45,671 nt of DNA, taken from positions 1-45,671 of the IMG/VR virus record IMGVR_UViG_3300045257_000224. One strand, given 5' to 3'. This DNA is from a virus. Positions 6,236 through 45,671 of this stretch are shown here, in pieces. Each line of letters opens with the position of its first letter. The stretch's first letter is position 1. A program made the position numbers and the translations under genes. Under the pieces are notes generated by a model that did no database searches, had not been told where the DNA came from, and saw only the letters and a list, made by a program, of their open reading frames with translations.

Positions 6236-6261
6236 TCGGGAATTATCCCTTCGAGGGAGAG
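6236..6261. repeat. 26-bp inverted repeat, left copy (element end?)
   Basis: Exact reverse complement of 19399-19424. The core reads GGGAATTATCCC then TTCGAGGGA, two nested palindromes. At the other copy the phage DUF5131 frame breaks exactly where this sequence starts, which suggests it is the terminal sequence of an insertion element. Here it lies directly upstream of the terminase start. Confidence 0.85.
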
Positions 6262-8086: not shown

Positions 8087-8255
8087 GCGTTAACTCGACT
8101 AGCGCAAGCGGGTTCATTAGTGCTTCCAGAGACAGATCCACGAGACGAATCAAGTTAGAGTCCGGCTGTTGATCGTATAGAGCCACGCGCGCTGCGAGAA
8201 GATCGGCGGTCGCTTGAACGAGTGCGGCGTCAGTGTGGATCTCGAATCCGGTCAT
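8079..8255 (-). CDS. Small helical protein downstream of recombinase
   Basis: 58 residues from the ATG at 8255, which overlaps the recombinase stop as ATGA. Largely helical (ALVQATADLLAARVALYD), acidic, with no motif. The overlap suggests co-translation with the recombinase; an accessory role is possible but unsupported. Confidence 0.5.
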   Translation of the reverse strand: MTGFEIHTDAALVQATADLLAARVALYDQQPDSNLIRLVDLSLEALMNPLALVELTRD

Positions 8256-8878
8256 ACGCCATCCAACCGGCACACAGCCCTCACCGTGCTAGGCCACCAT
8301 TTCGCCCCGGAACGTGCGGGAGGGACACGGCGGTTGTTCAACTCGGCAGCGACCGCCGTATAGCCCAGGCCACGCTTGCGTAGGTCGGCTATGAGGGAGA
8401 CGACGACAGGGCTGACGCTGCGCGGACGTCCGATCTGGACTCCTTCCGCTTTCTTCACCGCCAACGCTGCTTTCGTCCGTTCCCCGATCAGCCGTCTTTC
8501 GAACTGTGCGAACGCTGCCAACACGTTCGCCATCACCTCGCCTGCCGCCGTAGAAGTGTCCACTCCGAGGTCGAGGCAGATGAGTGCCCACCCCTCAGAT
8601 CGGCTTCTCTCGACGAGGCCGGCGAAGTCGAACACCGACCGGGACAACCGGTCGAGTTTGGACACCATGAGCGCGTCCGCCCCGCCAGCCTTCAACCGTT
8701 CCAGGGCGTCGGCGATTCCCGGCCGGTTCAGATCCTTCGCAGAGAACCCCTCATCCGTTACGAAACCTGCTAGTTCGTAGCCTGCCGTAACGCACGCCGA
8801 CCGGATAGTCGCCTCCTGCACTCTGAGCCCCGCCGCCTGTTCGTCTGTTGAGACCCTCACGTAGCCGAGCACTTTCAC
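8252..8878 (-). CDS. Small serine recombinase (resolvase/invertase family)
   Basis: 208 residues. Serine recombinases cut both strands at a 2-bp core through a phosphoserine link and rotate the ends. The N-terminal catalytic domain has GYVRVSTDEQ (nucleophile Ser10, Arg8) and the KLDRLSRS motif (about 74-81); the long E-helix follows (AFAQFERRLIGERT). After GRPRS comes a short DNA-binding HTH ending in WWPSTVRAVCR. It lacks the large C-terminal domain of phage serine integrases, so it resembles resolvases/invertases. GTG start with GGAGAAGG upstream. It lies between the 26-bp inverted repeats at 6236 and 19399. Confidence 0.9.
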   Translation of the reverse strand: MKVLGYVRVSTDEQAAGLRVQEATIRSACVTAGYELAGFVTDEGFSAKDLNRPGIADALERLKAGGADALMVSKLDRLSRSVFDFAGLVERSRSEGWALICLDLGVDTSTAAGEVMANVLAAFAQFERRLIGERTKAALAVKKAEGVQIGRPRSVSPVVVSLIADLRKRGLGYTAVAAELNNRRVPPARSGAKWWPSTVRAVCRLDGV

Positions 8879-9048
8879 GGTGCCTTCTCCTCGGAATCAA
8901 GTCCCTCAACACAATCACACGAGCCGTTCGGGAACGCCGGTTCGTTGTGAACCGAACAGTCGGAAGCGTGAAGAACGCCCTCCGAACACGCCTCGCACTG
9001 ACACCCGCTCCGAAGCTCCGGCCTCCGTGCGTCCTGGCTACCCCTCAC
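8875..9048 (-). CDS. Cys-rich 57-residue protein
   Basis: GTG start at 9048 overlaps the RHH stop as GTGA, and its own stop overlaps the recombinase start as GTGA. The 57-codon frame carries six cysteines (16, 18, 21, 31, 44, 46) in CxCxxC and CxC groups with an acidic tail (CVEGLDSEEKAP). This suggests a small metal-binding or redox-sensitive protein. Double overlap makes translation likely; function is unknown. Confidence 0.55.
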   Translation of the reverse strand: MRGSQDARRPELRSGCQCEACSEGVLHASDCSVHNEPAFPNGSCDCVEGLDSEEKAP

Positions 9049-9320
9049 GGCTTCCCTCCACGCGGATCAGGACCCCGAAACACCTTCGCGCCACTCGCGG
9101 GAACGGAGGAGACGCTTCCAGTCCGGTGAGGTTCTCCGGCCCCGGCCACGCCCACGTCCGATCCTCTATCGGACAGCTCCGCTCCCGCCAACGGCGCAAC
9201 CTCCACCGCAGCCTTATCGCACACCCAGTGAATCCAGTTCGCCAAAGACCGTCCCTGCTCCACAGCAGCAGCCTCCCAACGATCCTGAACCTCAACCGAA
9301 GGACGCAAAGTAAAAGCCAT
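9045..9320 (-). CDS. Ribbon-helix-helix regulator (Arc/CopG-like)
   Basis: 91 residues from the ATG at 9320. Residues 1-38 (MAFTLRPSVEVQDRW, then AVEQGRSLANWIHWVCDKA) form a beta-strand followed by two helices, the RHH fold of Arc/MetJ/CopG repressors and some antitoxins; the rest is a flexible Gly/Pro/Ser tail. It is the first gene of the leftward operon and starts 6 nt after a -10 box, so its mRNA is probably leaderless. Repeated TGGTAT sites overlie the promoter, consistent with autoregulation. No toxin partner is evident. Confidence 0.65.
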   Translation of the reverse strand: MAFTLRPSVEVQDRWEAAAVEQGRSLANWIHWVCDKAAVEVAPLAGAELSDRGSDVGVAGAGEPHRTGSVSSVPASGAKVFRGPDPRGGKP

Positions 9321-9365
9321 ACCACCACCATACCAACCCGATACCACGGTGTCAAGCTGATACCA
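9319..9365 (-). promoter_or_regulatory. Leaderless promoter with phased operator repeats
   Basis: On the minus strand TTGACA (9355-9350), a 17-bp spacer and TATGGT (9332-9327) precede the ATG at 9320 by 6 nt. TGGTAT occurs four times, at 9324-9319, 9335-9330, 9346-9341 and 9365-9360; three of them are spaced exactly 11 bp. RHH dimers bind such phased half-sites, so the first gene is a likely autorepressor here. Confidence 0.65.
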
Positions 9366-9643
9366 CGCCCGCACCCACAAAACGCTAGCACCAGATCCTG
9401 TGAGAACCGGCAGCCGTCAGGGACCCACGGTCGATCGCAGCGCAGCGGGGGTGGGGGTGCCCTCGAGCCCCTAGTACAGCCCGACTGGTGCAGCCGTGGA
9501 CGGGCGGGAATGGCTCAACCATGCGGTGCGTACACTAAACGGATGGTTCGTGTACGCGGCGAGGTGTAGCCCCTAGCCCTCGCGCGCGCGTGAAAGACCA
9601 CAAGGTCACGGCCGAGATGCCGAAAGCGGCTAGTGCTGGCGTG
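9366..9643. other. Non-coding control region with candidate rightward promoter and 8-codon ORF
   Basis: No gene-sized frame is supported here. A -10-like TACACT at 9531-9536 lies 6 nt before an ATG at 9543 that opens an 8-codon ORF (MVRVRGEV, stop 9567-9569), again a leaderless arrangement. No good -35 is seen. The rest is GC-rich with repeated TAGCCC motifs. A rightward transcript from here would end at the hairpin at 9664-9682. It may be a leader or small RNA. Confidence 0.3.
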
Positions 9644-9997: not shown

Positions 9998-10016
9998 GGT
10001 ACTGGGTCAGTTTGAA
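9998..10016. repeat. Left terminal inverted repeat of IS element
   Basis: GGTACTGGGTCAGTTTGAA. It matches the reverse complement of 13202-13220 at 18 of 19 positions (third base differs). Confidence 0.92.
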
Positions 10017-10897
10017 CGCAAGTCCTCCCGGTGCTTCTTGTAGGGGCCGCGATCGCGGGGCTTCGCATCCTCGGCGGACTCAAGGAGCCCGATGAGGTCT
10101 TGGAGTGTCCAGACGTGATCGGTGAGGCCAGCTGCGACCGCTGGGGTCGTCTTGAGCGTTGAGTGGACGCGCACGAAGTTGTAGTGCGTGAAGTGCAACG
10201 CCACGGCGCAGATGAGGTTCTCTAGCTTCTTGCTGTGGCCGTTGGTTAGCCGCGTGAAGCGGCGCATGCTCATCCGCATGGTCAAGTTCTGCCGCTCGAC
10301 ATAGCTTGTAGAGATCGTCGCCGGATCAGGATTGCCCGACCGGATGCGCGTGTCGATTCCCGTGCAGACCGGAGGGCTGTACCGGGCGTGTCCCTCGCGC
10401 TCGCTGCCGTACTTCTTGATCAGCTGCGCGAAGTCCACGTCCAGACCGAAGTTGTCGCGGATCGCCTTGACGTATGGCCCGTGCCCGTCCGTCGTCAGTT
10501 GCACGTCCCCGACGAGCCGGTCGGAAAGGTCGGCCATGAAGTTCTGTGCGTCCTCGGCCTCGCGCTTGCCGACGAGGTACGACACGACGAGCTTGGTGTC
10601 CGCGTCGATGCCGGTCCACGTCCAGACGTCGCCGTGACCCTCCCCCACGTTCTCGGGCTTGACGTTCTTCTGCTTGGCGAAGCAGAACGACCAGATCTCG
10701 TCGCATTGGACGTTCACAGCCTCGATCCCCCGCACCGTGTCGTAGTGGTGCGTGAGGCAGGCGTAGCCGAGATCGACCAGGAGCTTCGTGACGGTGTTCT
10801 TGCTCGCCCCCGTCATGCGGCACGTCGCGCGAATGCTGTTGCCCTCGACGAGCGCGCCGACGATTGCCGCGCGCTTCTCAGGTGAGAGCCGATTCAT
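10007..10897 (-). CDS. IS1-family DDE transposase
   Basis: 296 residues from the ATG at 10897. An upstream in-frame extension to 11101 exists but crosses the operator region. The N-terminal HTH (residues about 5-42: SIRATCRMTGASKNTVTKLL) binds the ends. The catalytic domain has CDEIWSFC (Asp66), TTDGHGPY (Asp137) and SYVERQNLTMRM (Glu201) followed by the basic RRFTRLTNG segment, the DDE signature of IS1-type enzymes. It is intact. No programmed frameshift is needed, unlike classical IS1. The stop lies inside the left inverted repeat. Confidence 0.92.
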   Translation of the reverse strand: MNRLSPEKRAAIVGALVEGNSIRATCRMTGASKNTVTKLLVDLGYACLTHHYDTVRGIEAVNVQCDEIWSFCFAKQKNVKPENVGEGHGDVWTWTGIDADTKLVVSYLVGKREAEDAQNFMADLSDRLVGDVQLTTDGHGPYVKAIRDNFGLDVDFAQLIKKYGSEREGHARYSPPVCTGIDTRIRSGNPDPATISTSYVERQNLTMRMSMRRFTRLTNGHSKKLENLICAVALHFTHYNFVRVHSTLKTTPAVAAGLTDHVWTLQDLIGLLESAEDAKPRDRGPYKKHREDLRSN

Positions 10898-13439: not shown

Positions 13440-13455
13440 CGGCAAAGGAGGGTAG

Positions 13456-13485
13456 ACCGCCGGCAAGATCGATCCTGCCGGCGGT
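13456..13485 (-). terminator. Strong hairpin downstream of DUF2303 gene
   Basis: A 10-bp perfect stem (ACCGCCGGCA / TGCCGGCGGT) with a 10-nt loop lies 10 bp after the stop of the leftward gene at 13495. The U-tract is weak. It probably separates the replication-type operon from the genes to its left. Confidence 0.6.
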
Positions 13486-13494
13486 CGTTTCCCT

Positions 13495-17256: not shown

Positions 17257-17486
17257 AGCGCCACCAACTTGAACCGCTCCCCGGCATTCAACTCAGCGTG
17301 ACGAGCACAGTCCCCGCAGAACACGACAAGCTTGTCCGATTCAAGATCGCGGTACAGGAAGGCACCATGCGTGCAGTCCTCGTTCGCGCAGTGATTCACC
17401 GGGAACGGAGGACGAAGCCGCCCGAACGCCGAACGCGCGGCTGCGTGGTCAGGACGCGAATCAGCGGCAGAACGCGGATCAGACAT
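17253..17486 (-). CDS. Small zinc-finger protein with repeated N-terminal cassette
   Basis: 77 residues from the ATG at 17486. Begins MSDPRSAADSRPDHAA, encoded by the repeated cassette. Then NHCANEDCTHGAFLYRD and VVFCGDCARHAELN give CxxxxC...CxxC, a likely zinc site. It overlaps the replication-type gene upstream by 8 bp. Function unknown; one of several Cys-rich small proteins in this operon. Confidence 0.6.
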   Translation of the reverse strand: MSDPRSAADSRPDHAAARSAFGRLRPPFPVNHCANEDCTHGAFLYRDLESDKLVVFCGDCARHAELNAGERFKLVAL

Positions 17487-17488
17487 CA
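17438..17488. repeat. 5'-coding cassette repeat, copy 2 (longest)
   Basis: Its first 30 bp are identical to 21723-21752; its last 29 bp match 22000-22028 with two mismatches. It covers the start codon and first 16 codons of the gene at 17486. Confidence 0.85.
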
Positions 17489-19396: not shown

Positions 19397-19644
19397 CCCT
19401 CTCCCTCGAAGGGATAATTCCCGAACCAGTCCGACCATGAGCAGGTGAAGATCAGCCGCGAGCCGTCCATCTTCAACGGCGCGGTAAACTTCGTCTTGGA
19501 GTGCCGGACGATCTCGGGGTCGTGCCCGTACTGTCTCTGCTCACGGAACATGTAGCAGTGGTCGCATCCGTCGCTGACCTTCGTGCAACCCATCCACGGA
19601 TTCCAGGTGCTCTCCGTCCATGAGATCCCCGTTTCGTCGCTCAT
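19369..19644 (-). pseudogene. DUF5131 (phage Gp37/Gp68) gene, truncated
   Basis: Starts MSDETGISWTESTWNPWMGC with AAAGGAG 7 nt upstream. The SWTESTWNP...GCTKVSDGCDHCY motif with CxxxxxxxCxxC defines the DUF5131 family, which may bind an iron-sulphur cluster. Homologues continue after the SWSDWF motif for another 150 or so residues with a conserved LTKRP. Here phage sequence stops at about 19425 and the last codons (about 16) are read from the inserted element. So it is a 5' fragment. Confidence 0.8.
19399..19424. repeat. 26-bp inverted repeat, right copy (element end)
   Basis: Exact reverse complement of 6236-6261. The outer base pairs of the core (GGGAATTATCCC read leftward) begin precisely where DUF5131 homology ends, which marks the right end of the inserted IS1595-type segment. 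It lies 2 bp after the passenger gene's stop. Confidence 0.85.
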
Positions 19645-19761: not shown

Positions 19762-20712
19762 CTACTCACAGCCGAGCATTCGATCCACAAGCAGCAACGC
19801 CGACACCTGCAACTGCTTCACTGTCGGCTCTAGAGCGGCCCTGGCTGCGGCCCAGGCTGCGGTCCTGGCTGCGTCCCTGGCTGCGTCCCTGGCTGCGTCC
19901 CTGGCTGCGTCCCTGGCTGCGTCCCTGGCTGCGTCCCAGGCTGCGTCCCAGGCTGCGGCCCCGGCTGCGGTCCCGGCGGTGTCCCAGGCTGCGTCCCAGG
20001 CTGCGGCCCCGGCTGCGGTCCCGGCTGCGTCCCCGGCTGCGGTCCCGGCTGCGGCCCTGGCGGTGTCCCAGGCTGCGTCCCAGGCTGCGTCCCAGGCTGC
20101 GGCCCCGGCTGCGGTCCCGGCTGCGTCCCCGGCTGCGGTCCCGGCTGCGGCCCTGGCGGTGTCCCAGGCTGCGTCCCAGGCTGCGTCCCAGGCTGCGTCC
20201 CCGGCTGCGTCCCAGGCTGCGTCCCTGGCGGTGTCCCAGGCTGCGTCCCTGGCTGCGTCCCTGGCTGCGTCCCTGGCTGCGTCCAGAGTCGGCTGCGCCT
20301 TCTCTGCCCGCTTCGTGGTTGTCAGGGCGGCGAGTCCTTCGAGTGCTTCCGCGTGCTCGGTCAGTCCGGCGAGACGAAGGAACGCAGGCGCGCACTCTCG
20401 GGCAAGCCAGTCCGCCGCCATCCACGCACGCTTCTCCTCCACCCGCGACGACGCCTTCGTCCCGACGAGACGGGGGATCAGCGGGATCAACATCTGCCGG
20501 TCACTGTCAGAGAGGCCGTCATTCCACGTGCGAAGGAACGCTCCGATCACCGGGGACGCGCATTCGGGATGATCCGACCACGGTTCGCCCGCGATGTACG
20601 AAACCGCTTCCATCGTGCAGGCGTGTACGAGCCCGTTGTCGGGGGGGTCGTGCCCTCCGGCTTCGAGGTGGAGTTCTTCCAGGTACGGCAGACGTTCCTC
20701 GATTACGCTCAT
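19762..20712 (-). CDS. Alanine-rich tetrapeptide-repeat protein
   Basis: 316 residues from the ATG at 20712 (GGAGG upstream). Residues 1-140 form a helical domain seen in many actinobacterial and phage proteins (YLEELHLEAGGHDPPDNGL; CTMEAVSYIAGEPWSDHPEC; WMAADWLARECAPAFLRLAG). Residues about 144-293 are tandem four-residue repeats of the type DAAW, DAAR, GTAA and GDAA, then a short end domain (VKQLQVSALLLVDRM). The repeat part should form a long Ala-rich helix. Related proteins have been linked to immunity-type or unknown roles; function here is unknown. Confidence 0.7.
   Translation of the reverse strand: MSVIEERLPYLEELHLEAGGHDPPDNGLVHACTMEAVSYIAGEPWSDHPECASPVIGAFLRTWNDGLSDSDRQMLIPLIPRLVGTKASSRVEEKRAWMAADWLARECAPAFLRLAGLTEHAEALEGLAALTTTKRAEKAQPTLDAARDAARDAARDAAWDTARDAAWDAAGDAAWDAAWDAAWDTARAAAGTAAGDAAGTAAGAAAWDAAWDAAWDTARAAAGTAAGDAAGTAAGAAAWDAAWDTAGTAAGAAAWDAAWDAARDAARDAARDAARDAARDAARTAAWAAARAALEPTVKQLQVSALLLVDRMLGCE
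19835..20284. repeat. 12-bp coding minisatellite
   Basis: About 37 tandem copies of a 12-bp unit close to GCTGCGTCCCTG on the plus strand (Ala-Ala-Arg-Asp in antisense), with blocks of higher-order duplication. In-frame length changes are expected by slippage or recombination. Confidence 0.9.
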
Positions 20713-20730
20713 AGTGTCCTCCTGGTCCTC

Positions 20731-20785
20731 AACTCGTCGCCCCAACCTGTGCAGCAGGGCAGCCTCGAGGCGGAGGCGACGAGTT
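20731..20785. other. Intergenic inverted repeat
   Basis: AACTCGTCGCC (20731-20741) and GGCGACGAGTT (20775-20785) are a perfect 11-bp inverted repeat with a 33-nt loop, in the spacer between the lysin and alanine-repeat genes. Rest of the 144-bp spacer shows no ORF of note. Possible terminator or operator. Confidence 0.45.
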
Positions 20786-21516: not shown

Positions 21517-21759
21517 TCACGCGGCCACCTGGAAATGTTCGGCGCACGGAGCGCACATGAAGTATTGAACGTGGCAGTACGGCGTAGGGCCAATCTCAAC
21601 CGTGCCGCGTTCGGTGTAGCAGGAGGCGCACATCTTCTCCTTCTTCGACCAGAGCGCAAGTTGCTCGAAGGCGGCGGCGATGTCGAGGGTCACCTGCGCG
21701 AGACTCTTATAGCGAGTCGGGCCGGCTGCGTGGTCAGGACGCGAATCAGCGGGGCTCAC
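21517..21759 (-). CDS. Small Cys-rich protein with repeated N-terminal cassette
   Basis: 80 residues, GTG start overlapping the upstream stop (GTGA). Begins MSPADSRPDHAAGPTR from the repeated cassette, then a helix, then MCASCYTERGTVE and CHVQYFMCAPCAEHF, giving two CxxC pairs plus His, a probable zinc-binding module. Function unknown. Confidence 0.6.
   Translation of the reverse strand: MSPADSRPDHAAGPTRYKSLAQVTLDIAAAFEQLALWSKKEKMCASCYTERGTVEIGPTPYCHVQYFMCAPCAEHFQVAA
21723..21752. repeat. 5'-coding cassette repeat, copy 3
   Basis: 30 bp identical to 17438-17467, about 4.3 kb away in the same orientation, inside the start of the gene at 21759. Confidence 0.88.
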
Positions 21760-22028
21760 TTCTTGTCCTTCCGGTAGTCCACGCCGAGCGCGAAGTACCG
21801 CGCCCGGTCGTTCTCCATGTCGAGCCGGTTGCAGAGCATGGCTACACGTGAGCCGCGCTCCCTACTTTCGGGCGAACGCATCTCGGCGTCGAGCGCGGCC
21901 AGATGTTCAGTGACGTCGGAACTGAGGGCGCGCAGGTGCTTCTTCACCTTCCGAAGTTCCCGCGCGGCTGTGTCGGGTTGAGCCGTGAGATCAGGAAGCG
22001 GATCAGCGGCAGAACACGGCTCAGACAT
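21756..22028 (-). CDS. Small helical protein with variant cassette
   Basis: 90 residues from the ATG at 22028 (TGATG overlap). Begins MSEPCSAADPLPDLTA, encoded by a diverged copy of the repeated cassette, then a charged helix/coiled segment (AARELRKVKKHLRALSSD) and a C-terminal YFALGVDYRKDKK. No metal motif or enzyme signature. Confidence 0.55.
   Translation of the reverse strand: MSEPCSAADPLPDLTAQPDTAARELRKVKKHLRALSSDVTEHLAALDAEMRSPESRERGSRVAMLCNRLDMENDRARYFALGVDYRKDKK
22000..22028. repeat. 5'-coding cassette repeat, copy 4
   Basis: 29 bp matching 17460-17488 with two mismatches; includes the start codon of the gene at 22028. A shorter relative (17 bp, one mismatch) is at 22242-22258. Confidence 0.8.
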
Positions 22029-22258
22029 CACAGCGGCCACCACCATTTCGAGCCGGTCGCATCGAGGCGGCAGTCTGTGTGTCCACCATCGCCCCAATGG
22101 GCCACTCCGCGCGGAGAGACGATGACGAGGTTCGCCACCACGTCGCCGTGATACAGCTTCGGACGGCACCGCTTGCAGAGTCGCTTCACCTCCGGGCGCG
22201 GAACTTCCCAATCGTCGCGTGGTGCGGATGTGGCTGTAGAGGAACACGGCTCAGTCAT
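22028..22258 (-). CDS. Small basic Cys/His protein
   Basis: 76 residues, ATG at 22258 (ATGA overlap). Begins MTEPCSSTATS; then RLCKRCRPKLYHGDVV with a CxxC, and GGHTDCRLDATGSKWWW with His and Cys that could complete a zinc site. Function unknown; nucleic-acid binding is plausible from charge. Confidence 0.55.
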   Translation of the reverse strand: MTEPCSSTATSAPRDDWEVPRPEVKRLCKRCRPKLYHGDVVANLVIVSPRGVAHWGDGGHTDCRLDATGSKWWWPL

Positions 22259-22485
22259 GCTTCCTCCTCCGCAGACTCCAAAAGCTCGAGCGCCTCATGC
22301 TGGCACGAGCACGGTATGAACACTCCGGCACCGTTTTCGTCGGTCACCATCACTCCGACACCAGCGACGAATCCTTCGCCCATGCCGCCCGGAACGCGGC
22401 GCTCCACGACGGTGGCGGTCCAGCCTGACCGGATGAGTTCGGCAAGCCACTCACGAGTGCCATAGCTGACAGCCATAGTCGCCAT
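22255..22485 (-). CDS. Small beta-rich protein of unknown function
   Basis: 76 residues from the ATG at 22485 that overlaps the RHH stop (TGATG); a GTG one codon earlier is possible. Sequence MAVSYGTREWLAELIRSG leads into beta-strands (GFVAGVGVMVTDENGAGVF), ending PCSCQHEALELLESAEEEA. Second gene of the leftward early operon. No family recognised. Confidence 0.55.
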   Translation of the reverse strand: MATMAVSYGTREWLAELIRSGWTATVVERRVPGGMGEGFVAGVGVMVTDENGAGVFIPCSCQHEALELLESAEEEA

Positions 22486-22655
22486 CACTCTCCGCTCCGC
22501 TCAATGGTTCGCGGGTTGAGGCCCCGGTCGACGAACACCGCCGCCAGATTTGAGAGTGAGCGATCTGCTTGCTCCGCTTGGACGCGGAGTTGGTCGTGGA
22601 GTTCCGGGGTGAGATAGATTGTTAGAGCGACCTTCGTCTTCGAGTTGGTAGCCAT
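22485..22655 (-). CDS. Ribbon-helix-helix protein (CopG/Arc-like)
   Basis: 56 residues from the ATG at 22655. KVALTIYLTPELHDQLRVQA is a beta-strand plus helix, followed by a second helix (SLSNLAAVFVDRGLN), the RHH DNA-binding fold. First gene of the leftward early operon, 7 nt after a candidate -10 box, so probably translated from a leaderless mRNA. It likely represses its own and perhaps the divergent promoter. It differs from the RHH gene at 9320, so the phage has two such regulators. Confidence 0.65.
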   Translation of the reverse strand: MATNSKTKVALTIYLTPELHDQLRVQAEQADRSLSNLAAVFVDRGLNPRTIERSGE

Positions 22656-22719
22656 TGGCCGCAGCGTATCACATGGCTCCCACTTGACGCAAGGGGCTAC
22701 ACCTTGCTAAGCTGCTCGC
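22656..22719. promoter_or_regulatory. Divergent leaderless promoters with shared -35 region
   Basis: Rightward: TTGACG (22684-22689), 18-bp spacer, TAAGCT (22708-22713), ATG at 22720. Leftward: TTGCGT (22692-22687), 18-bp spacer, TACGCT (22668-22663), ATG at 22655. The -35 boxes overlap, so one polymerase should exclude the other. A palindrome GCAAGG-7-CCTTGC (22689-22707) overlies both and could bind a repressor. Promoter calls are by consensus only. Confidence 0.55.
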
Positions 22720-22875
22720 ATGATCCTTCTCTACTGGTTCCTGATCGCTACCTGTGCTGGTGTCGACCTCGACCTCGCCTGGCACCACGACGGCATACGA
22801 CTCGCCGGCTGCTCCCTAGCCCTGTTGGCGTTCCTTGCGGTTCGGCGCGACCTCACGGACGAGAAGACACTGTGA
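22720..22875 (+). CDS. Small membrane protein, first gene of rightward operon
   Basis: 51 residues. Hydrophobic N-terminus (MILLYWFLIATCAG) and a second hydrophobic helix (LAGCSLALLAFLAV) before a charged tail (RRDLTDEKTL), likely two membrane passes. ATG is 6 nt after the -10 box. Stop overlaps the next GTG. Possible host takeover or membrane anchor; no family known. Confidence 0.5.
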   Translation: MILLYWFLIATCAGVDLDLAWHHDGIRLAGCSLALLAFLAVRRDLTDEKTL

Positions 22876-23087
22876 AGGCTTGGATGTTTCATCTACGTCT
22901 CCTCCGTGTACCACTGTGGCCGGAAGCGATCTGTGAGAAATGCCGCTCCGTTGCGTCACTGACGGACGTAGAACTGGACGCCGACGGCTACGCCGTATGC
23001 CCCACCTGCGGGCACACCACATTCTCCTCAAACGGAGTACCACTTCCATCAGTCATCGTCGAGAGCACGGATGCGTCTCGTGGCTGA
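22872..23087 (+). CDS. Small zinc-ribbon protein
   Basis: 71 residues from the GTG at 22872 (GTGA overlap). EAICEKCRSVASLTDVELD and YAVCPTCGHTTF give two CxxC knuckles about 25 residues apart, a zinc ribbon. Function unknown. Transcription-modulating zinc ribbons are common in phage early regions. Confidence 0.6.
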   Translation: MKAWMFHLRLLRVPLWPEAICEKCRSVASLTDVELDADGYAVCPTCGHTTFSSNGVPLPSVIVESTDASRG

Positions 23088-23265
23088 TATGTCTGCACAT
23101 GGCCTCGACCAGGACTACCCGCTCCTCATGGAGCAGAGTCGCAAGTTCGACTTCGTGGAGCGTCTCGGCGGCTGTTCTGACCCGCTCATGGCCGAGATCG
23201 ACAAGGCTCTGCGCGAACTTTGGGATGCTCACGCCTATCTGAAAGACGAGCCGAACCGTGTCTGA
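23071..23265 (+). CDS. Small helical protein
   Basis: 64 residues, ATG inside the end of the preceding gene. Acidic and helical (MAEIDKALRELWDAHAYLKD), no motif. Overlaps the next gene's GTG by 8 bp. Function unknown. Confidence 0.5.
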   Translation: MRLVADMSAHGLDQDYPLLMEQSRKFDFVERLGGCSDPLMAEIDKALRELWDAHAYLKDEPNRV

Positions 23266-23434
23266 GATGTCTGCGACTGATCTGATCGCTGCCGCCGACC
23301 GGCTCGGAGTAGACGCCCACAACCTCCGCGAGATCGCTGACAGGTATGACGCTATCAGTGTGCGGTTGCGGGAGTTGGGGTTCCTCATGCTCGTCAACGA
23401 ACCGAAGAGTGACACCGATGAGAGGACGATCTAA
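23258..23434 (+). CDS. Small helical protein (58 aa)
   Basis: GTG at 23258 (ATG at 23267 is an alternative). Starts VSEMSATDLIAAADRLGVD and contains a helical core (LREIADRYDAISVRLRELGF). Stop TAA overlaps the next ATG (TAATG). Good codon pattern and overlaps support translation; function unknown. Confidence 0.5.
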   Translation: MSEMSATDLIAAADRLGVDAHNLREIADRYDAISVRLRELGFLMLVNEPKSDTDERTI

Positions 23435-23709
23435 TGGCAACCATCCGCAAGACGATCTACCGTTGCGATGCGTGCGGCGAGACGGTACCCGCGAAGCGTG
23501 ACCTCGTGCAGTTCCGCGTCGAGCGCGGGCCGCGCGGATATTACTCCAGCGGCGTGACTGGCATCAGAACCGACCTGTGCGACTCATGCGAGGTCGGATT
23601 CCTGACGAACCTGCCGCCATTCTACGGAGACGCGGACGCGATCAACAAGACGCTCCGCCGCGATCCGCCCAAGCCTCCCAAGAAGAAGAAGGAGACTCAG
23701 AGTGGCTGA
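23434..23709 (+). CDS. Zinc-ribbon protein
   Basis: 91 residues. IYRCDACGETVPAKRDLVQF and TDLCDSCEVGF give two CxxC pairs about 40 residues apart. Tail is basic and Pro/Lys rich (PPKPPKKKKETQSG). Overlaps the SSB-like gene by 8 bp, so it may act with it at DNA, but this is inference. Confidence 0.6.
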   Translation: MATIRKTIYRCDACGETVPAKRDLVQFRVERGPRGYYSSGVTGIRTDLCDSCEVGFLTNLPPFYGDADAINKTLRRDPPKPPKKKKETQSG

Positions 23710-24163
23710 CCTGGCTCGCACCATCACCGTCGAACACGTAGACGAAAAAACAGGCACCACCAACGGACGCGACTGGAAGGTGTACAAGATCAAGTCCGAA
23801 GACGGAGCCTTTTTCGCCACGTTCGACGGCACAATGGGCTCCAACGCTAAAGCCGCCCAAGGCCGCCGCGCGCACATCACGTACACCAGCACCGAGAAAG
23901 GCAACAACCTCGTCTCGTTCGTCGTGGACGAATCCTCGCAGGCTCCCGTGGAACCAGTCCGGGACCGGACCGACGGAGACGAACCGGACTGGGATTTGAT
24001 CGGGCTTCGGAAGACGCGGTGCGCGTTGTGGGCGGCAGCGATCGGTGCAAGCTTCGAGAACGGAGGATTTGACGCGGACGTGTGCCACCAAATCGTGCTC
24101 GCGGCTGAGGTCGACATCTTTCATCGTGCTCCTGCCACCGCAACCAGCGACATTCCGTTCTGA
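23702..24163 (+). CDS. Single-stranded DNA-binding-like protein
   Basis: 153 residues, GTG start. N-terminal about 80 residues are beta-strand rich (WKVYKIKSEDGAFFATFDG; RRAHITYTSTEKGNNLVSFV) as in an OB fold. The C-terminus ends in TSDIPF, the acidic/Phe tip SSB proteins use to bind partner enzymes. A helical segment (ALWAAAIGASFE) separates them. It would protect ssDNA during replication and recombination. Similarity is by layout, without a database hit. Confidence 0.6.
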   Translation: MADLARTITVEHVDEKTGTTNGRDWKVYKIKSEDGAFFATFDGTMGSNAKAAQGRRAHITYTSTEKGNNLVSFVVDESSQAPVEPVRDRTDGDEPDWDLIGLRKTRCALWAAAIGASFENGGFDADVCHQIVLAAEVDIFHRAPATATSDIPF

Positions 24164-24546
24164 TGAAGCCTCCGTCGCAGAACGACCGCATCCTCGCCGT
24201 CCTCCAAGACGGCCAGGAACACGAGATGCGCGACATCCACCGTGTCGCCGGGTTCTGCCGGTTGAACTCGAGGGTCAGCGAGCTTCGCAAGCGCGGCCTC
24301 ACGATCACCTGCCGCCGCGAAGGGTCGAGCTACTACTACCGGCTCGTCAAGCCGTTCGTACACGTTGATCGCTTCTTTCCGCCTTGTGAGTGCGAGGCCT
24401 GCGAGAAGGCGCGTATGCCGATTCCCTGCTCCGAGCCTGTGATCGCATGTGTCGTGGATGAGAGTGCTGGCCACGCGGAGCAGTTGGCGCTCACTGATTC
24501 CGTAGCCGCACACATCCGACGCGATATGGACGGGACCCCGTTGTGA
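24163..24546 (+). CDS. Winged-helix DNA-binding protein
   Basis: 127 residues (TGATG overlap). QNDRILAVLQDGQEHEMRDI, then NSRVSELRKRGLTITCRREG and YYYRL form a winged helix common in phages. A later PPCECEACEKARMP segment has three close cysteines. Likely a regulator or replication accessory protein; target unknown. Confidence 0.65.
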   Translation: MKPPSQNDRILAVLQDGQEHEMRDIHRVAGFCRLNSRVSELRKRGLTITCRREGSSYYYRLVKPFVHVDRFFPPCECEACEKARMPIPCSEPVIACVVDESAGHAEQLALTDSVAAHIRRDMDGTPL

Positions 24547-24899
24547 GCCGCAGCGAAGCATCAAAGGAAGTCTCTCGCAGGCTGTCCCGCGAAGCCAAGC
24601 AGCGGCGGCGCGGAATCTGCGAAGACTGTGGAGCGAAGACGCGTTACAACGGCCACGGGGTTGCGCGCTGGTGTAGGACGTGCGGACCGAAGCACGCCGG
24701 ACTAGCCAACCAGGGAAACGGCCCGTTGCAGCGGCGACTCTATGCACTCCTAGACGCTGGCATGTATCGCTTTACGGATCTCCAACGCTCGCTAGGAATC
24801 AGGACCGATCACATGGGGACGATGCTCAACCGCGAGTTGAAGTGGGGCCGCATTGAGCGGTTCGCTCGCGGCCACTACCGGCGAGTACCCGATGCCTGA
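24543..24899 (+). CDS. Zinc-ribbon plus winged-helix protein
   Basis: 118 residues from the GTG at 24543 (GTGA overlap). The basic N-terminus is followed by CEDCGAKTRYNGHG and WCRTCGPKH (two CxxC), then a winged helix (LYALLDAGMYRFTDLQRSLG to GRIERFARGHYRRVP). The combination suggests a DNA-binding regulator. Confidence 0.6.
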   Translation: MSRSEASKEVSRRLSREAKQRRRGICEDCGAKTRYNGHGVARWCRTCGPKHAGLANQGNGPLQRRLYALLDAGMYRFTDLQRSLGIRTDHMGTMLNRELKWGRIERFARGHYRRVPDA

Positions 24900-25017
24900 C
24901 CGGGCAGGGGATCGCATGATCGGCGCATCGAACAAGGGATACCCGATCCGCGTCCAGGTTTACATCGGCGGTTCGTGGCGTTACCTCGGACAACGGAGGG
25001 CACACCGTGGCCACTGA
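24892..25017 (+). CDS. Small 41-residue basic protein
   Basis: ATG at 24892 lies in the end of the preceding gene, and stop at 25017 lies inside the next gene. MPDRAGDRMIGASNKGYPIR continues with beta-like VQVYIGGSWRYLG. Overlaps support translation. Function unknown. Confidence 0.45.
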   Translation: MPDRAGDRMIGASNKGYPIRVQVYIGGSWRYLGQRRAHRGH

Positions 25018-25192
25018 CCAGCCTGCCACTTCTCGACGCGATCCGTACGACGCCCTCCGCGACGGGGACTCAGAGGCCCGTTACGAGTCAGATCCGCGTG
25101 CGGAACCGGAACAGTGGGAAACAGACGAAGCCAGGTTCGTGAAAGAGCATGGGGGCTATCTGTTGGACGAAGACTCCGGGTTTCGCGGATGA
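25007..25192 (+). CDS. Small acidic protein
   Basis: 61 residues, GTG with GGAGGG upstream. Very acidic (ALRDGDSEARYESDPRAEPE), so it could be a DNA-mimic or antirestriction-type protein, though nothing specific proves it. ATGA overlap with the next gene. Confidence 0.5.
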   Translation: MATDQPATSRRDPYDALRDGDSEARYESDPRAEPEQWETDEARFVKEHGGYLLDEDSGFRG

Positions 25193-25866
25193 GCAAGGTG
25201 GTGTGGAGAGAAAAGCTAGAGGAACTAAAACGCGCCCGCGCAGAATGGGTCCTGACCCAATTGCGTGCAGGAGCTTCTATAAAGGAGATCGCCGCGTCTC
25301 AAGCAATTTCTCGCCAGAGCGTTGACCAATGGCTGAACCGATACGACGATCTCTGGACTGAGTACCACGAGTTCATTGAAGATGAACGGGAACGTAAAGC
25401 GCAACAGAGAGCCGAAGAGATATGGGAGCGCGCACTTAGGAACCGATCTCGCAAAAAGACTCTGCCTCGGCGGTGGACAAACGAGCAATTGGAACAGTTC
25501 GTCCGTGACGCCGCTGCTGAACTTGGGGAACCTCTCTCATCGTTGGCGTTCCGTGATTGGCTCATACCTAGAGATGCTCCTACCTACCGTGGTCTCGTAG
25601 TCCGACTAGGGCGTTCTTGGAGTCAGGTATGCGAACGTTGCGGCGTCGTTTCTGTGGGGGGACGGGGGATTAGCCGAACAGTTGAAGAGTGCGAACGAGT
25701 AGTACTTCGGCTAACAGACTTCTTAGGACGTCCCCCCACTATCGAGGAATACGAGCGATTCAAAATGCCATCTGATCCCTCAGCGTCAACCGTGCGGGAA
25801 CGCCTTGGCAACGGGACATGGTCTGGAGTAACTAACGCGTTCTTAGATCATGCGGTCGAGTCGTGA
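25189..25866 (+). CDS. HTH protein with homing-endonuclease-associated repeats
   Basis: 225 residues from the ATG at 25189. An N-terminal HTH (GASIKEIAASQAISRQSVDQ) is followed by two copies of a repeat: about 103-160 (RWTNEQLEQFVRDAAAELGE to SWSQVCERCGV) and about 165-222 (SRTVEECERVVLRLTDFLGR to TWSGVTNAFLDHA). This matches the HNH/homing-endonuclease-associated repeat family that reads DNA next to nuclease domains. No HNH or GIY-YIG domain is present. Codon use looks more AT-rich than its neighbours, suggesting acquisition. Confidence 0.6.
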   Translation: MSKVVWREKLEELKRARAEWVLTQLRAGASIKEIAASQAISRQSVDQWLNRYDDLWTEYHEFIEDERERKAQQRAEEIWERALRNRSRKKTLPRRWTNEQLEQFVRDAAAELGEPLSSLAFRDWLIPRDAPTYRGLVVRLGRSWSQVCERCGVVSVGGRGISRTVEECERVVLRLTDFLGRPPTIEEYERFKMPSDPSASTVRERLGNGTWSGVTNAFLDHAVES

Positions 25867-25884
25867 CCTTCCTCGACGGCCAGC

Positions 25885-26268
25885 ATGTCTGAGTCTCTTT
25901 GGGTTCCAGCCGACCGTCTGTTAGCCGTCATCGCCGAACATCCCAACCCCACCAGCGCCCTCAAAGGGCAGAACTGTGAACGCACCTTCCGGTATGTGAA
26001 AGCAGGGACCCGTGCGTTTGTGTCGCTACGAGCAGCGGACTCGATTCTGACCCGGCTCGGGTTGAACCATCACTGGCACACCCCGAAAGACCAGGGCGGG
26101 CTAGCCGACATTTACGAGGACGGAGCCCAGTACGGTTCCCCGGTCAGTCCTGCTTTCACCGGGCGTCCGGCAACGGTCAGGTATGAGTCGGAGGATGATC
26201 GGTGTGAGGCTCGGCGGCGGTCGTGGCGGGAGTACAAGCAGCGGCAAAAAGAACGCTTCGATGGCTAG
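25885..26268 (+). CDS. Phage protein with HTH-like N-terminus
   Basis: 127 residues. WVPADRLLAVIAEHPNP and SLRAADSILTRLGLNHHWH resemble short HTH-like phage proteins of actinobacterial viruses; the C-terminal third is charged (RCEARRRSWREYKQRQKERF). Separated by 18 bp from the previous gene and overlapping the endonuclease VII gene by 8 bp. DNA binding is inferred. Confidence 0.5.
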   Translation: MSESLWVPADRLLAVIAEHPNPTSALKGQNCERTFRYVKAGTRAFVSLRAADSILTRLGLNHHWHTPKDQGGLADIYEDGAQYGSPVSPAFTGRPATVRYESEDDRCEARRRSWREYKQRQKERFDG

Positions 26269-26659
26269 GAGATTCTGGTCGTGTCCTGGCTGCGGTTTCC
26301 GTAACGAACGAACGAAGCAGAAATGCCAAACCGCAGGCTGCAACAGGTCCCGTCCGAAGCCGCGAGTCCCGAAGCACGCCGTGACGTTACGCGACGACAG
26401 CTACGACCACTATGAGGCGCACTCCATGCTGGTCCACGGAGGAGAACCGGACTCATGCCGCGTCTGCGGACGCCCACGCCATGAGGCGATGCGTCATCAC
26501 CGCGACCACGACCACGTAACCGGCAATCCGCGCGGAGTTGTGTGTTTCCAGTGCAACAGTCTGATGCCGCGCCTGCTCACCCTCGAGCGGGCACGGCTCA
26601 TCACCGCTTACCTCGAACGCGATGCCGCGTACTGGCAAGCGCCCGTCTCCGACGACTAG
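26261..26659 (+). CDS. Recombination endonuclease VII family protein
   Basis: 132 residues from the ATG at 26261. An N-terminal zinc ribbon (CPGCGFRNERTKQKC...C) precedes the endonuclease VII core: CRVCGRPRHEAMRHHRDHDH and TGNPRGVVCFQCN. HHRDHDH with the flanking CxxC pairs is the His-Me metal site that resolves branched DNA before packaging. Last gene of the rightward operon; converges with the leftward lysis cluster with 1 bp between stops. Confidence 0.85.
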   Translation: MARRFWSCPGCGFRNERTKQKCQTAGCNRSRPKPRVPKHAVTLRDDSYDHYEAHSMLVHGGEPDSCRVCGRPRHEAMRHHRDHDHVTGNPRGVVCFQCNSLMPRLLTLERARLITAYLERDAAYWQAPVSDD

Positions 26660-44761: not shown

Positions 44762-45671
44762 CTACCCCGTGATGCCTGTCCACAGGGCGTGCGTGCTTTC
44801 CTGCATGAACTCGAGCGAGTGCTCGGTGAGATACTCGCGCGAGTCGACGTCGTCTCCGGGAGCCTGCCGCTTCAACAGAAGCTGCGTGTCCCGGTCGCGG
44901 AGCGGTGCGTACCGGACATAGTCCATGTCCAGCAGGAACGCCGCCCCGCCAGGACCGTTCACGGCGGACGTGGAGAAGTTGTTCCAGTACCGCTTGATGA
45001 ACACCGGGATCGGCGTCCCGTACGCCCCTGAGATCCACGAGTCGACGTGGACTCCCCACTTCGTCTCGTCGGGGGTTGCGCGAACCCAGTTGTCGCGGAG
45101 GAACCCCGACATGGCCTTCGCCACGATCGGAGCCACAAACAACGCCTTCGACGCCATGTTGCCGTGCTGCAACGCCGAAGTGATGTTCGTGTCGAACGTC
45201 GACTTGTCGAGTGTCCCGACGGACTTGTTCACGTTCGTCGAGATGAACTCGTACGCGCCTCCGCAGTATCCGCGCTTGTTCGTCGAGTCGAACGAACGGG
45301 CACCCCAGAAGCATGTCTGTTCGATCGACTGCTTATGCTCGATCAGCTTCTTCACCTGCTCCTTCATCGGGTTCCGTCCGCCGTACTCTTCGATGGCGGT
45401 TTCCGTCCCGGTGAAGCTGAACGGGTCTCTCTGAATTTGCGAGTAGTTGTATCCGAGGATGCGCTGCACGATGCGGCTGGTCCCGAACGACGCGCCCTGC
45501 TTGTACGCCGAACCGACAAGCAGCAGTTGGGCGGTCGAAGCGGACGACGCCGCCGCGACAGCACCAACGGCCCGTTCGACCGTCACCGCGTCCGTCGAGA
45601 TGGCCGTGACGTGCATCATCTCGCCGGTTGCGAGGTTGCGCAACGTGTCATCGGCGGCAAGGGACAAGCCC
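44762..45671 (-). CDS. Major capsid protein, C-terminal part (begins at 404 in window)
   Basis: Runs from the right edge to TAG at 44764-44762. Contains SFGTSRIVQRILGYNYSQI, QRDPFSFTGTETAIEEYGG, then KEQVKKLIEHKQSIEQTCFW and RYWNNFSTSAVNGPGGAAFL, and ends HSLEFMQESTHALWTGITG; these fit the peripheral and axial domains of the SU10/DUF5309-type capsid. Joined across the contig ends after removing the 147-bp overlap, the whole gene is 1,167 nt (388 residues). Confidence 0.85.
   Translation of the reverse strand, partial: GLSLAADDTLRNLATGEMMHVTAISTDAVTVERAVGAVAAASSASTAQLLLVGSAYKQGASFGTSRIVQRILGYNYSQIQRDPFSFTGTETAIEEYGGRNPMKEQVKKLIEHKQSIEQTCFWGARSFDSTNKRGYCGGAYEFISTNVNKSVGTLDKSTFDTNITSALQHGNMASKALFVAPIVAKAMSGFLRDNWVRATPDETKWGVHVDSWISGAYGTPIPVFIKRYWNNFSTSAVNGPGGAAFLLDMDYVRYAPLRDRDTQLLLKRQAPGDDVDSREYLTEHSLEFMQESTHALWTGITG
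45525..45671. repeat. Terminal direct repeat, right copy
   Basis: Matches 1-147 at 145 of 147 positions; differences at 45651 and 45661. See left copy. Confidence 0.95.

What the first reader, a model, noticed from the sequence alone, without database searches (positions are those of the whole stretch)
22656..22719. 64-bp bidirectional switch: two leaderless promoters with overlapping -35 boxes and a shared palindrome
Both start codons lie 6-7 nt from their -10 boxes and the two -35 elements overlap head to head at 22684-22692. A GCAAGG/CCTTGC palindrome covers both. Such geometry forces mutually exclusive transcription of the two early operons, without long leaders. The first leftward gene is itself an RHH protein.
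Basis: partly seen in the sequence, partly recalled or inferred. Interest (0 to 1): 0.6.

Follow-up and report, generated by a model that had tools for sequence, protein, structure and literature searches.

The report
Compact two-way leaderless phage promoter
In an uncultivated bacterial virus, 64 bases carry two back-to-back promoters that start two opposite operons with almost no untranslated leader; the layout is real and neat, but it belongs to a known kind of compact phage control region, and whether it acts as an either/or switch is untested.

Summary
Between ATG 22655(-) and ATG 22720(+) lie two promoter-like sites, TTGCGT-N18-TACGCT-N7-ATG leftward and TTGACG-N18-TAAGCT-N6-ATG rightward. 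Their -35 hexamers overlap at 22687-22689, and the -10 of each is preceded by TGN. No Markov window (0/400) gave this geometry. The 64 bp are two-fold symmetric about 22688 (18/32 pairs, mean 8.4). Neither start has a Shine-Dalgarno, unlike most operon-internal genes, so leaderless initiation is well supported.

The palindrome does not cover both promoters: it sits in the right promoter's spacer and touches only the edge of the left -35. Alone it is unremarkable (19% of 64-nt stretches have one), although a 17/19 near-copy lies at 9559-9577 (per-site chance about 0.7%). Overlapping -35s imply competition for RNA polymerase, not mutually exclusive operons; that needs a regulator with unequal effects.

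My model: RHH1 (56 aa, Arc-like), first gene of the weaker leftward promoter, binds the palindrome, represses rightward transcription and so favours its own side. This is P22 Arc/Mnt-like or pLS20-like logic; binder and effect are inferred. No relative holding this region was found. New member of a known kind.

The parts
22656..22719 (.). Intergenic bidirectional promoter region between divergent ATGs, two-fold symmetric about 22688
   Evidence: Sequence; symmetry 18/32 versus genome mean 8.4; 0/400 Markov windows with this geometry
22684..22713 (+). Rightward promoter: -35 TTGACG (22684-22689), N18, extended -10 TGC-TAAGCT (22705-22713); predicted transcription start at or near ATG 22720
   Evidence: first T of TANNNT is at -12 from the ATG, where bacterial leaderless signals peak (PMC3160421)
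22663..22692 (-). Leftward promoter: -35 TTGCGT (+ strand 22687-22692), N18, extended -10 TGA-TACGCT (+ strand 22663-22668); predicted start at or near ATG 22655
   Evidence: -35 weaker (3/6) than the right one (5/6)
22689..22707 (.). Palindrome GCAAGG-N7-CCTTGC, putative operator; centre 22698 = -22 from the right start and -43 from the left start
   Evidence: near-copy at 9559. Arms alone are not beyond chance
9559..9577 (+). Near-copy of the palindrome: GCGAGGTGTAGCCCCTAGC, 17/19 identical to the minus strand of 22689-22707; similarity stops at the palindrome ends; both differences at symmetric positions 3 and 17
   Evidence: per-site chance about 27/4000
22485..22655 (-). RHH1, 56-aa ribbon-helix-helix protein, first gene of the leftward operon; candidate regulator
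   Evidence: Pfam RHH_5 above cut-off; PHROG Arc-like repressor E 5.8e-5; weak NCBIfam ORF56 copy-control match
22720..22875 (+). First rightward gene, 51-aa hydrophobic, probably membrane, protein; stop overlaps the next start (GTGA)
   Evidence: no family match
22720..26659 (+). Rightward operon: small proteins, zinc ribbon, winged helix (24163-24546), HTH/HNH-repeat protein (25114-25866), endonuclease VII (26183-26659)
9045..9320 (-). Second RHH-like protein (by eye only), with a third leaderless extended -10 promoter TTGACA-N17-TATGGT-N6-ATG
   Evidence: no Pfam, PHROG or NCBIfam match

Best explanation
A compact, two-fold symmetric bidirectional promoter for two early operons of a novel high-GC phage. 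The host's housekeeping RNA polymerase binds either face through overlapping -35s; each face uses an extended TANNNT -10 and starts at the first base of the start codon, giving leaderless mRNAs (layout shown; start points inferred). Because the -35s overlap, the two polymerases compete (inferred). The 19-bp palindrome lies between the -35 and -10 of the rightward promoter, so whatever binds it should mainly repress rightward transcription and, by relieving competition or by touching polymerase from -43, favour leftward transcription (inferred). The likeliest binder is RHH1, the 56-aa Arc-like product of the first leftward gene (inferred). The outcome would be a regulator-driven handover or balance between a 4-kb rightward early operon and the leftward replication/late operon, not exclusion imposed by geometry.
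For: Exact geometry and ATG spacing. 0/400 Markov windows with it; TGN-TANNNT-N6/7-ATG enriched 3 versus 0.075. No Shine-Dalgarno at either start (-1.7 and +0.4 kcal/mol), whereas most operon-internal leftward genes score -5 to -12. TANNNT about 12 bp before the start is the bacterial leaderless signature, commonest in Actinobacteria and Deinococcus-Thermus (PMC3160421). TGN-extended TANNNT promoters are the more active class in M. tuberculosis (PMC3898074). RHH_5 / Arc-like match of the first leftward gene. A 17/19 near-copy of the palindrome with similarity ending at its edges. The weaker -35 faces the regulator gene, as the weak promoter does in pLS20 (PMC4207663).
Against: No transcription start, binding or expression data. 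No relative carrying this region was found, so no conservation test. The palindrome arms are within chance, and any 64-bp stretch has a 12% chance of some 19-mer near-copy. The near-copy at 9559 is not at a recognised promoter. -10 boxes match E. coli consensus at only 3/6. Host unknown. A helix-turn-helix protein of the phage or a host factor could be the binder instead.
Confidence: 0.5

Rival explanations
1. Plain co-regulation: a symmetric bidirectional promoter gives roughly balanced early expression of both operons, and the RHH protein represses both in negative feedback; there is no switch.
For: Strong two-fold symmetry and near-identical -10 regions (TACGCTGC / TAAGCTGC). Both operons carry DNA-metabolism genes. 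Autorepression is common for RHH proteins (established knowledge).
Against: The palindrome is not central: it lies inside the right promoter, predicting unequal effects. -35 strengths differ (5/6 versus 3/6).
Confidence: 0.3
2. One reading: the overlap itself makes the two operons mutually exclusive, as a lysis-lysogeny type decision.
For: -35 overlap. Polymerase can bind only one of two overlapping promoters at a time (PMC4207663).
Against: Occupancy is exclusive only for the time before promoter escape. No integrase or CI-like gene was seen among the genes searched, although a 208-aa serine recombinase exists. The left operon contains replication and structural genes and the right an endonuclease VII, so neither looks like a lysogeny module.
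Confidence: 0.08
3. Only the leaderless promoters are real; the palindrome and its near-copy are chance, or belong to another DNA function such as a recombinase or partition site.
For: 19% background for the palindrome; 12% of random 64-bp stretches have a comparable near-copy of some 19-mer; the 9559 copy lies in a non-coding stretch with an 8-bp perfect inverted repeat, upstream of a serine recombinase gene.
Against: The near-copy matches precisely the palindrome and no more, including its 7-bp spacer; only 2 of 152 comparable palindromes in the window have such a copy.
Confidence: 0.3

Closest known systems
P22 immI region (Pant/Pmnt with Arc and Mnt, both RHH); from own knowledge, not tested here
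   Same: Small RHH protein about the size of Arc (53 aa); divergent promoters; operator between the -35 and -10 of one promoter; predicted repression of one side and help to the other
   Different: Here the genes start leaderless and the -35s overlap head to head; only one RHH gene is adjacent; no sequence homology of operators was tested
pLS20 overlapping divergent promoters Pc/Pr with RcoLS20 (PMC4207663)
   Same: Overlapping divergent promoters of unequal strength, with the regulator encoded by the weaker one
   Different: Conjugative plasmid, a tetrameric regulator with looping and two operators; here an RHH protein and one local palindrome
PY54 telomere-phage cI/cro region (PMC4488713)
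   Same: Divergent phage regulatory genes, both transcribed as leaderless mRNAs starting at AUG (mapped by RACE)
   Different: CI/Cro repressors, different promoter arrangement, lysogeny gene on one side
Mycobacteriophage BPs 33-34 region, Prep/PR with gp33 (PMC4557955)
   Same: Short divergent control region with a palindromic operator next to a -35, plus further operator copies in the genome
   Different: Lysogeny repressor with integration-dependent immunity; more operators; different repressor
Closely juxtaposed divergent leaderless promoters of M. tuberculosis, e.g. prpD/Rv1129c (PMC3898074)
   Same: TANNNT -10, leaderless on both sides, regulator divergent from its target
   Different: Chromosomal; no fixed -35 overlap reported

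Membership tests
Bacterial leaderless promoter (TANNNT class) | TANNNT -10 about 12 bp upstream of the start codon (first T) | tested here: met
   First T at -12 (right) and -13 (left); 3 TGN-TANNNT cases versus 0.075 expected
Bacterial leaderless promoter (TANNNT class) | No Shine-Dalgarno at the start, although the genome uses one elsewhere | tested here: met
   -1.7 and +0.4 kcal/mol versus mostly -5 to -12 at operon-internal genes
Bacterial leaderless promoter (TANNNT class) | 5' end of mRNA at the start codon | not testable with these tools
   Needs RNA 5'-end mapping
RHH (CopG/Arc) repressor family | RHH domain in the first leftward gene | tested here: met
   Pfam RHH_5 31.8 bits against a cut-off of 26
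RHH (CopG/Arc) repressor family | Binds an operator in its own promoter region | not testable with these tools
   No binding data; palindrome present
Overlapping divergent-promoter switch (pLS20 Pc/Pr type) | Core promoter elements overlap | tested here: met
   -35 hexamers share 22687-22689
Overlapping divergent-promoter switch (pLS20 Pc/Pr type) | Unequal promoter strength and a regulator with opposite effects | tested here: inconclusive
   -35 match 5/6 versus 3/6 suggests unequal strength; regulator effect unknown
Lambda-like lysis-lysogeny switch | Divergent CI-like and Cro-like repressors with a lysogeny module on one side | tested here: not met
   One side starts with an RHH gene, the other with a 51-aa hydrophobic protein; no CI or integrase match among the genes searched

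The most novel reading that the evidence does not exclude
A minimal 64-bp symmetric leaderless bidirectional promoter in which one RHH protein, by binding a single palindrome in the stronger promoter, flips polymerase occupancy to its own side, making a one-protein, one-operator positive-feedback switch that times early versus later phage transcription, with a second operator copy at 9559 linking it to a remote locus.
Probability: 0.15. Interest if true: 0.55.

Novelty: new member of a known kind. Interest (0 to 1): 0.3.

Why it matters
It is a clean, very small example of how a phage of a leaderless-type host can run two opposite operons from one symmetric piece of DNA, and it offers a tractable test of how much pure promoter overlap, versus a repressor, contributes to choosing a direction. 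It does not overturn known principles.

Tried and rejected
RHH1 relatives: none in viral contigs, genome contigs, the phage collection or the L002/L003 records. Neighbour proteins gave only L003 (78% identical terminase, 25-kb fragment; no RHH1 match in it) and L002 (43% over part of the replication protein). The palindrome core searched in viral contigs gave one hit inside an apparent coding stretch of an unrelated contig, judged chance. The exact full geometry in viral contigs gave 5 hits against 5 for a shifted-spacing control; the 5 test hits are AT-rich with no ORFs leading away (the control hits were counted, not read). No hit in 296 genomes of the phylum of a Solirubrobacteraceae MAG. 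IS transposase relatives (mostly 50-61% identity, in many phyla) did not reveal the host. A structure prediction of the 153-aa rightward protein, to test an SSB idea, was too poor (pLDDT 38.7), so SSB is not claimed. Sigma-70 consensus and Rfam scans found nothing. An iid estimate (0.001) made the near-copy look stronger than empirical controls allow.

Full report
What is there. The gap between the divergent start codons at 22655 (-) and 22720 (+) is exactly 64 bp. Rightward: TTGACG-N18-TAAGCT-N6-ATG. Leftward: TTGCGT-N18-TACGCT-N7-ATG. Both -10 boxes carry the TGN extension. The two -35 hexamers interlock in TTGACGCAA (22684-22692), sharing 3 bp. The whole element is symmetric about 22688: 18 of 32 base positions pair, genome mean 8.4, sd 2.6, top 0.09% of centres.

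Is it more than chance? By E. coli consensus neither promoter is convincing, and the consensus scan lists none. By the TANNNT leaderless rule they are: TGN-TANNNT-N6/7-ATG with a TTG-like -35 occurs three times in the window against 0.075 in Markov sequence and 0-1 at other spacings; the head-to-head form with start codons occurs in 0 of 400 Markov windows. The third case is the start of a small RHH-like protein at 9320 (-). The phage otherwise uses Shine-Dalgarno sequences inside operons (mostly -5 to -12 kcal/mol; several rightward genes are weaker), but these two starts have none (-1.7, +0.4). The position fits published leaderless signals (PMC3160421), and TGN-TANNNT promoters are the more active class in M. 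tuberculosis (PMC3898074).

The palindrome. GCAAGG-N7-CCTTGC at 22689-22707 is real, but 19% of 64-nt stretches of this genome have one as good. It lies from -31 to -13 of the right start and from -34 to -52 of the left start, so it does not 'cover both'. Support for function comes from a near-copy at 9559-9577: 17/19 identical, identity ending at the palindrome's edges, both differences at mirror positions. Only 0.7% of random 19-mers, and 2 of 152 comparable palindromes, have such a copy; but any 64-bp stretch has a 12% chance of containing some such 19-mer. Suggestive, not proof.

Setting. The window is a virus record with a 147-bp direct terminal repeat at 98.6%, so a probably complete genome of about 45.5 kb at 60-66% GC. 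The only close relative found in the collections is a 25-kb fragment, L003, in which no RHH1 match was found. Leftward from the element: RHH1, small proteins, replication initiator, helicase-loader-like protein, terminase, portal. Rightward, 4 kb: a 51-aa hydrophobic protein, zinc ribbon, winged helix, HTH/HNH-repeat protein, endonuclease VII. Both sides look lytic; no integrase or CI-like repressor was found among the genes searched. The host is unknown; leaderless starts and high GC make an actinobacterium or similar likely (inference).

How it probably works. Overlapping -35s mean one polymerase at a time (inference from geometry; principle in PMC4207663). That alone gives competition, not exclusive operons. 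A protein on the palindrome would block the right promoter directly and could help the left by relieving competition or by contact from -43. RHH1, encoded by the side with the weaker -35, is the natural candidate. This resembles P22 Arc/Mnt (own knowledge) and pLS20. Steps shown: sequence layout, RHH family, absence of Shine-Dalgarno, symmetry. Steps inferred: start points, competition, operator function, binder, direction of effect.

Known or new? Divergent leaderless phage regulatory genes are documented in PY54 (PMC4488713), closely spaced divergent promoters are common in M. tuberculosis with a leaderless pair at prpD (PMC3898074), overlapping divergent promoters in pLS20 (PMC4207663), and operator palindromes in BPs (PMC4557955). 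The exact geometry was not found recurring elsewhere: viral contigs 5 hits against 5 in control, none in 296 genomes. This is a tidy new member of a known kind.

Noticed in passing
9290-9400 (-): Promoter of a second RHH-like protein (ATG 9320): TTGACA-N17-TATGGT-N6-ATG with three direct repeats GTGGTATC/GTGGTATC/TTGGTATG across it; looks like an autoregulated operator.
   Followed up: partly
9526-9577: Non-coding stretch with a perfect 8-bp inverted repeat GCGTACAC-N14-GTGTACGC right beside the palindrome near-copy, upstream of a serine recombinase gene (8252-8878); possible recombination or partition site.
   Followed up: no
1-147 and 45525-45671: 98.6% direct terminal repeat; L003 aligns across the junction, so the record is probably a complete circular or circularly permuted genome.
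   Followed up: partly
10007-10897 (-): Transposase-like ORF with relatives at mostly 50-61% identity in many phyla; its own start also fits a leaderless promoter (TTGACA...CATACT-N7-ATG).
   Followed up: partly
17438-17488, 21723-21752, 21991-22030: 30-40 nt repeats shared by the first codons of three leftward small genes (SAADSRPDHAA-like N-termini).
   Followed up: no
6236-6261 and 19399-19424: 26-nt perfect inverted copy in two distant places; function unknown.
   Followed up: no
13455-13486: Near-perfect 32-nt palindrome (around CCGCCGGCAAGATCGATCCTGCCGGCGG) followed by TCGTTTCCC; terminator-like hairpin.
   Followed up: no
19762-20745 (-): Alanine-rich repeat protein (AARDAAWDAA units) whose DNA matches hypothetical genes of Pseudomonas phages PPpW-3 and AF at 86-88%, probably low-complexity similarity.
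   Followed up: no
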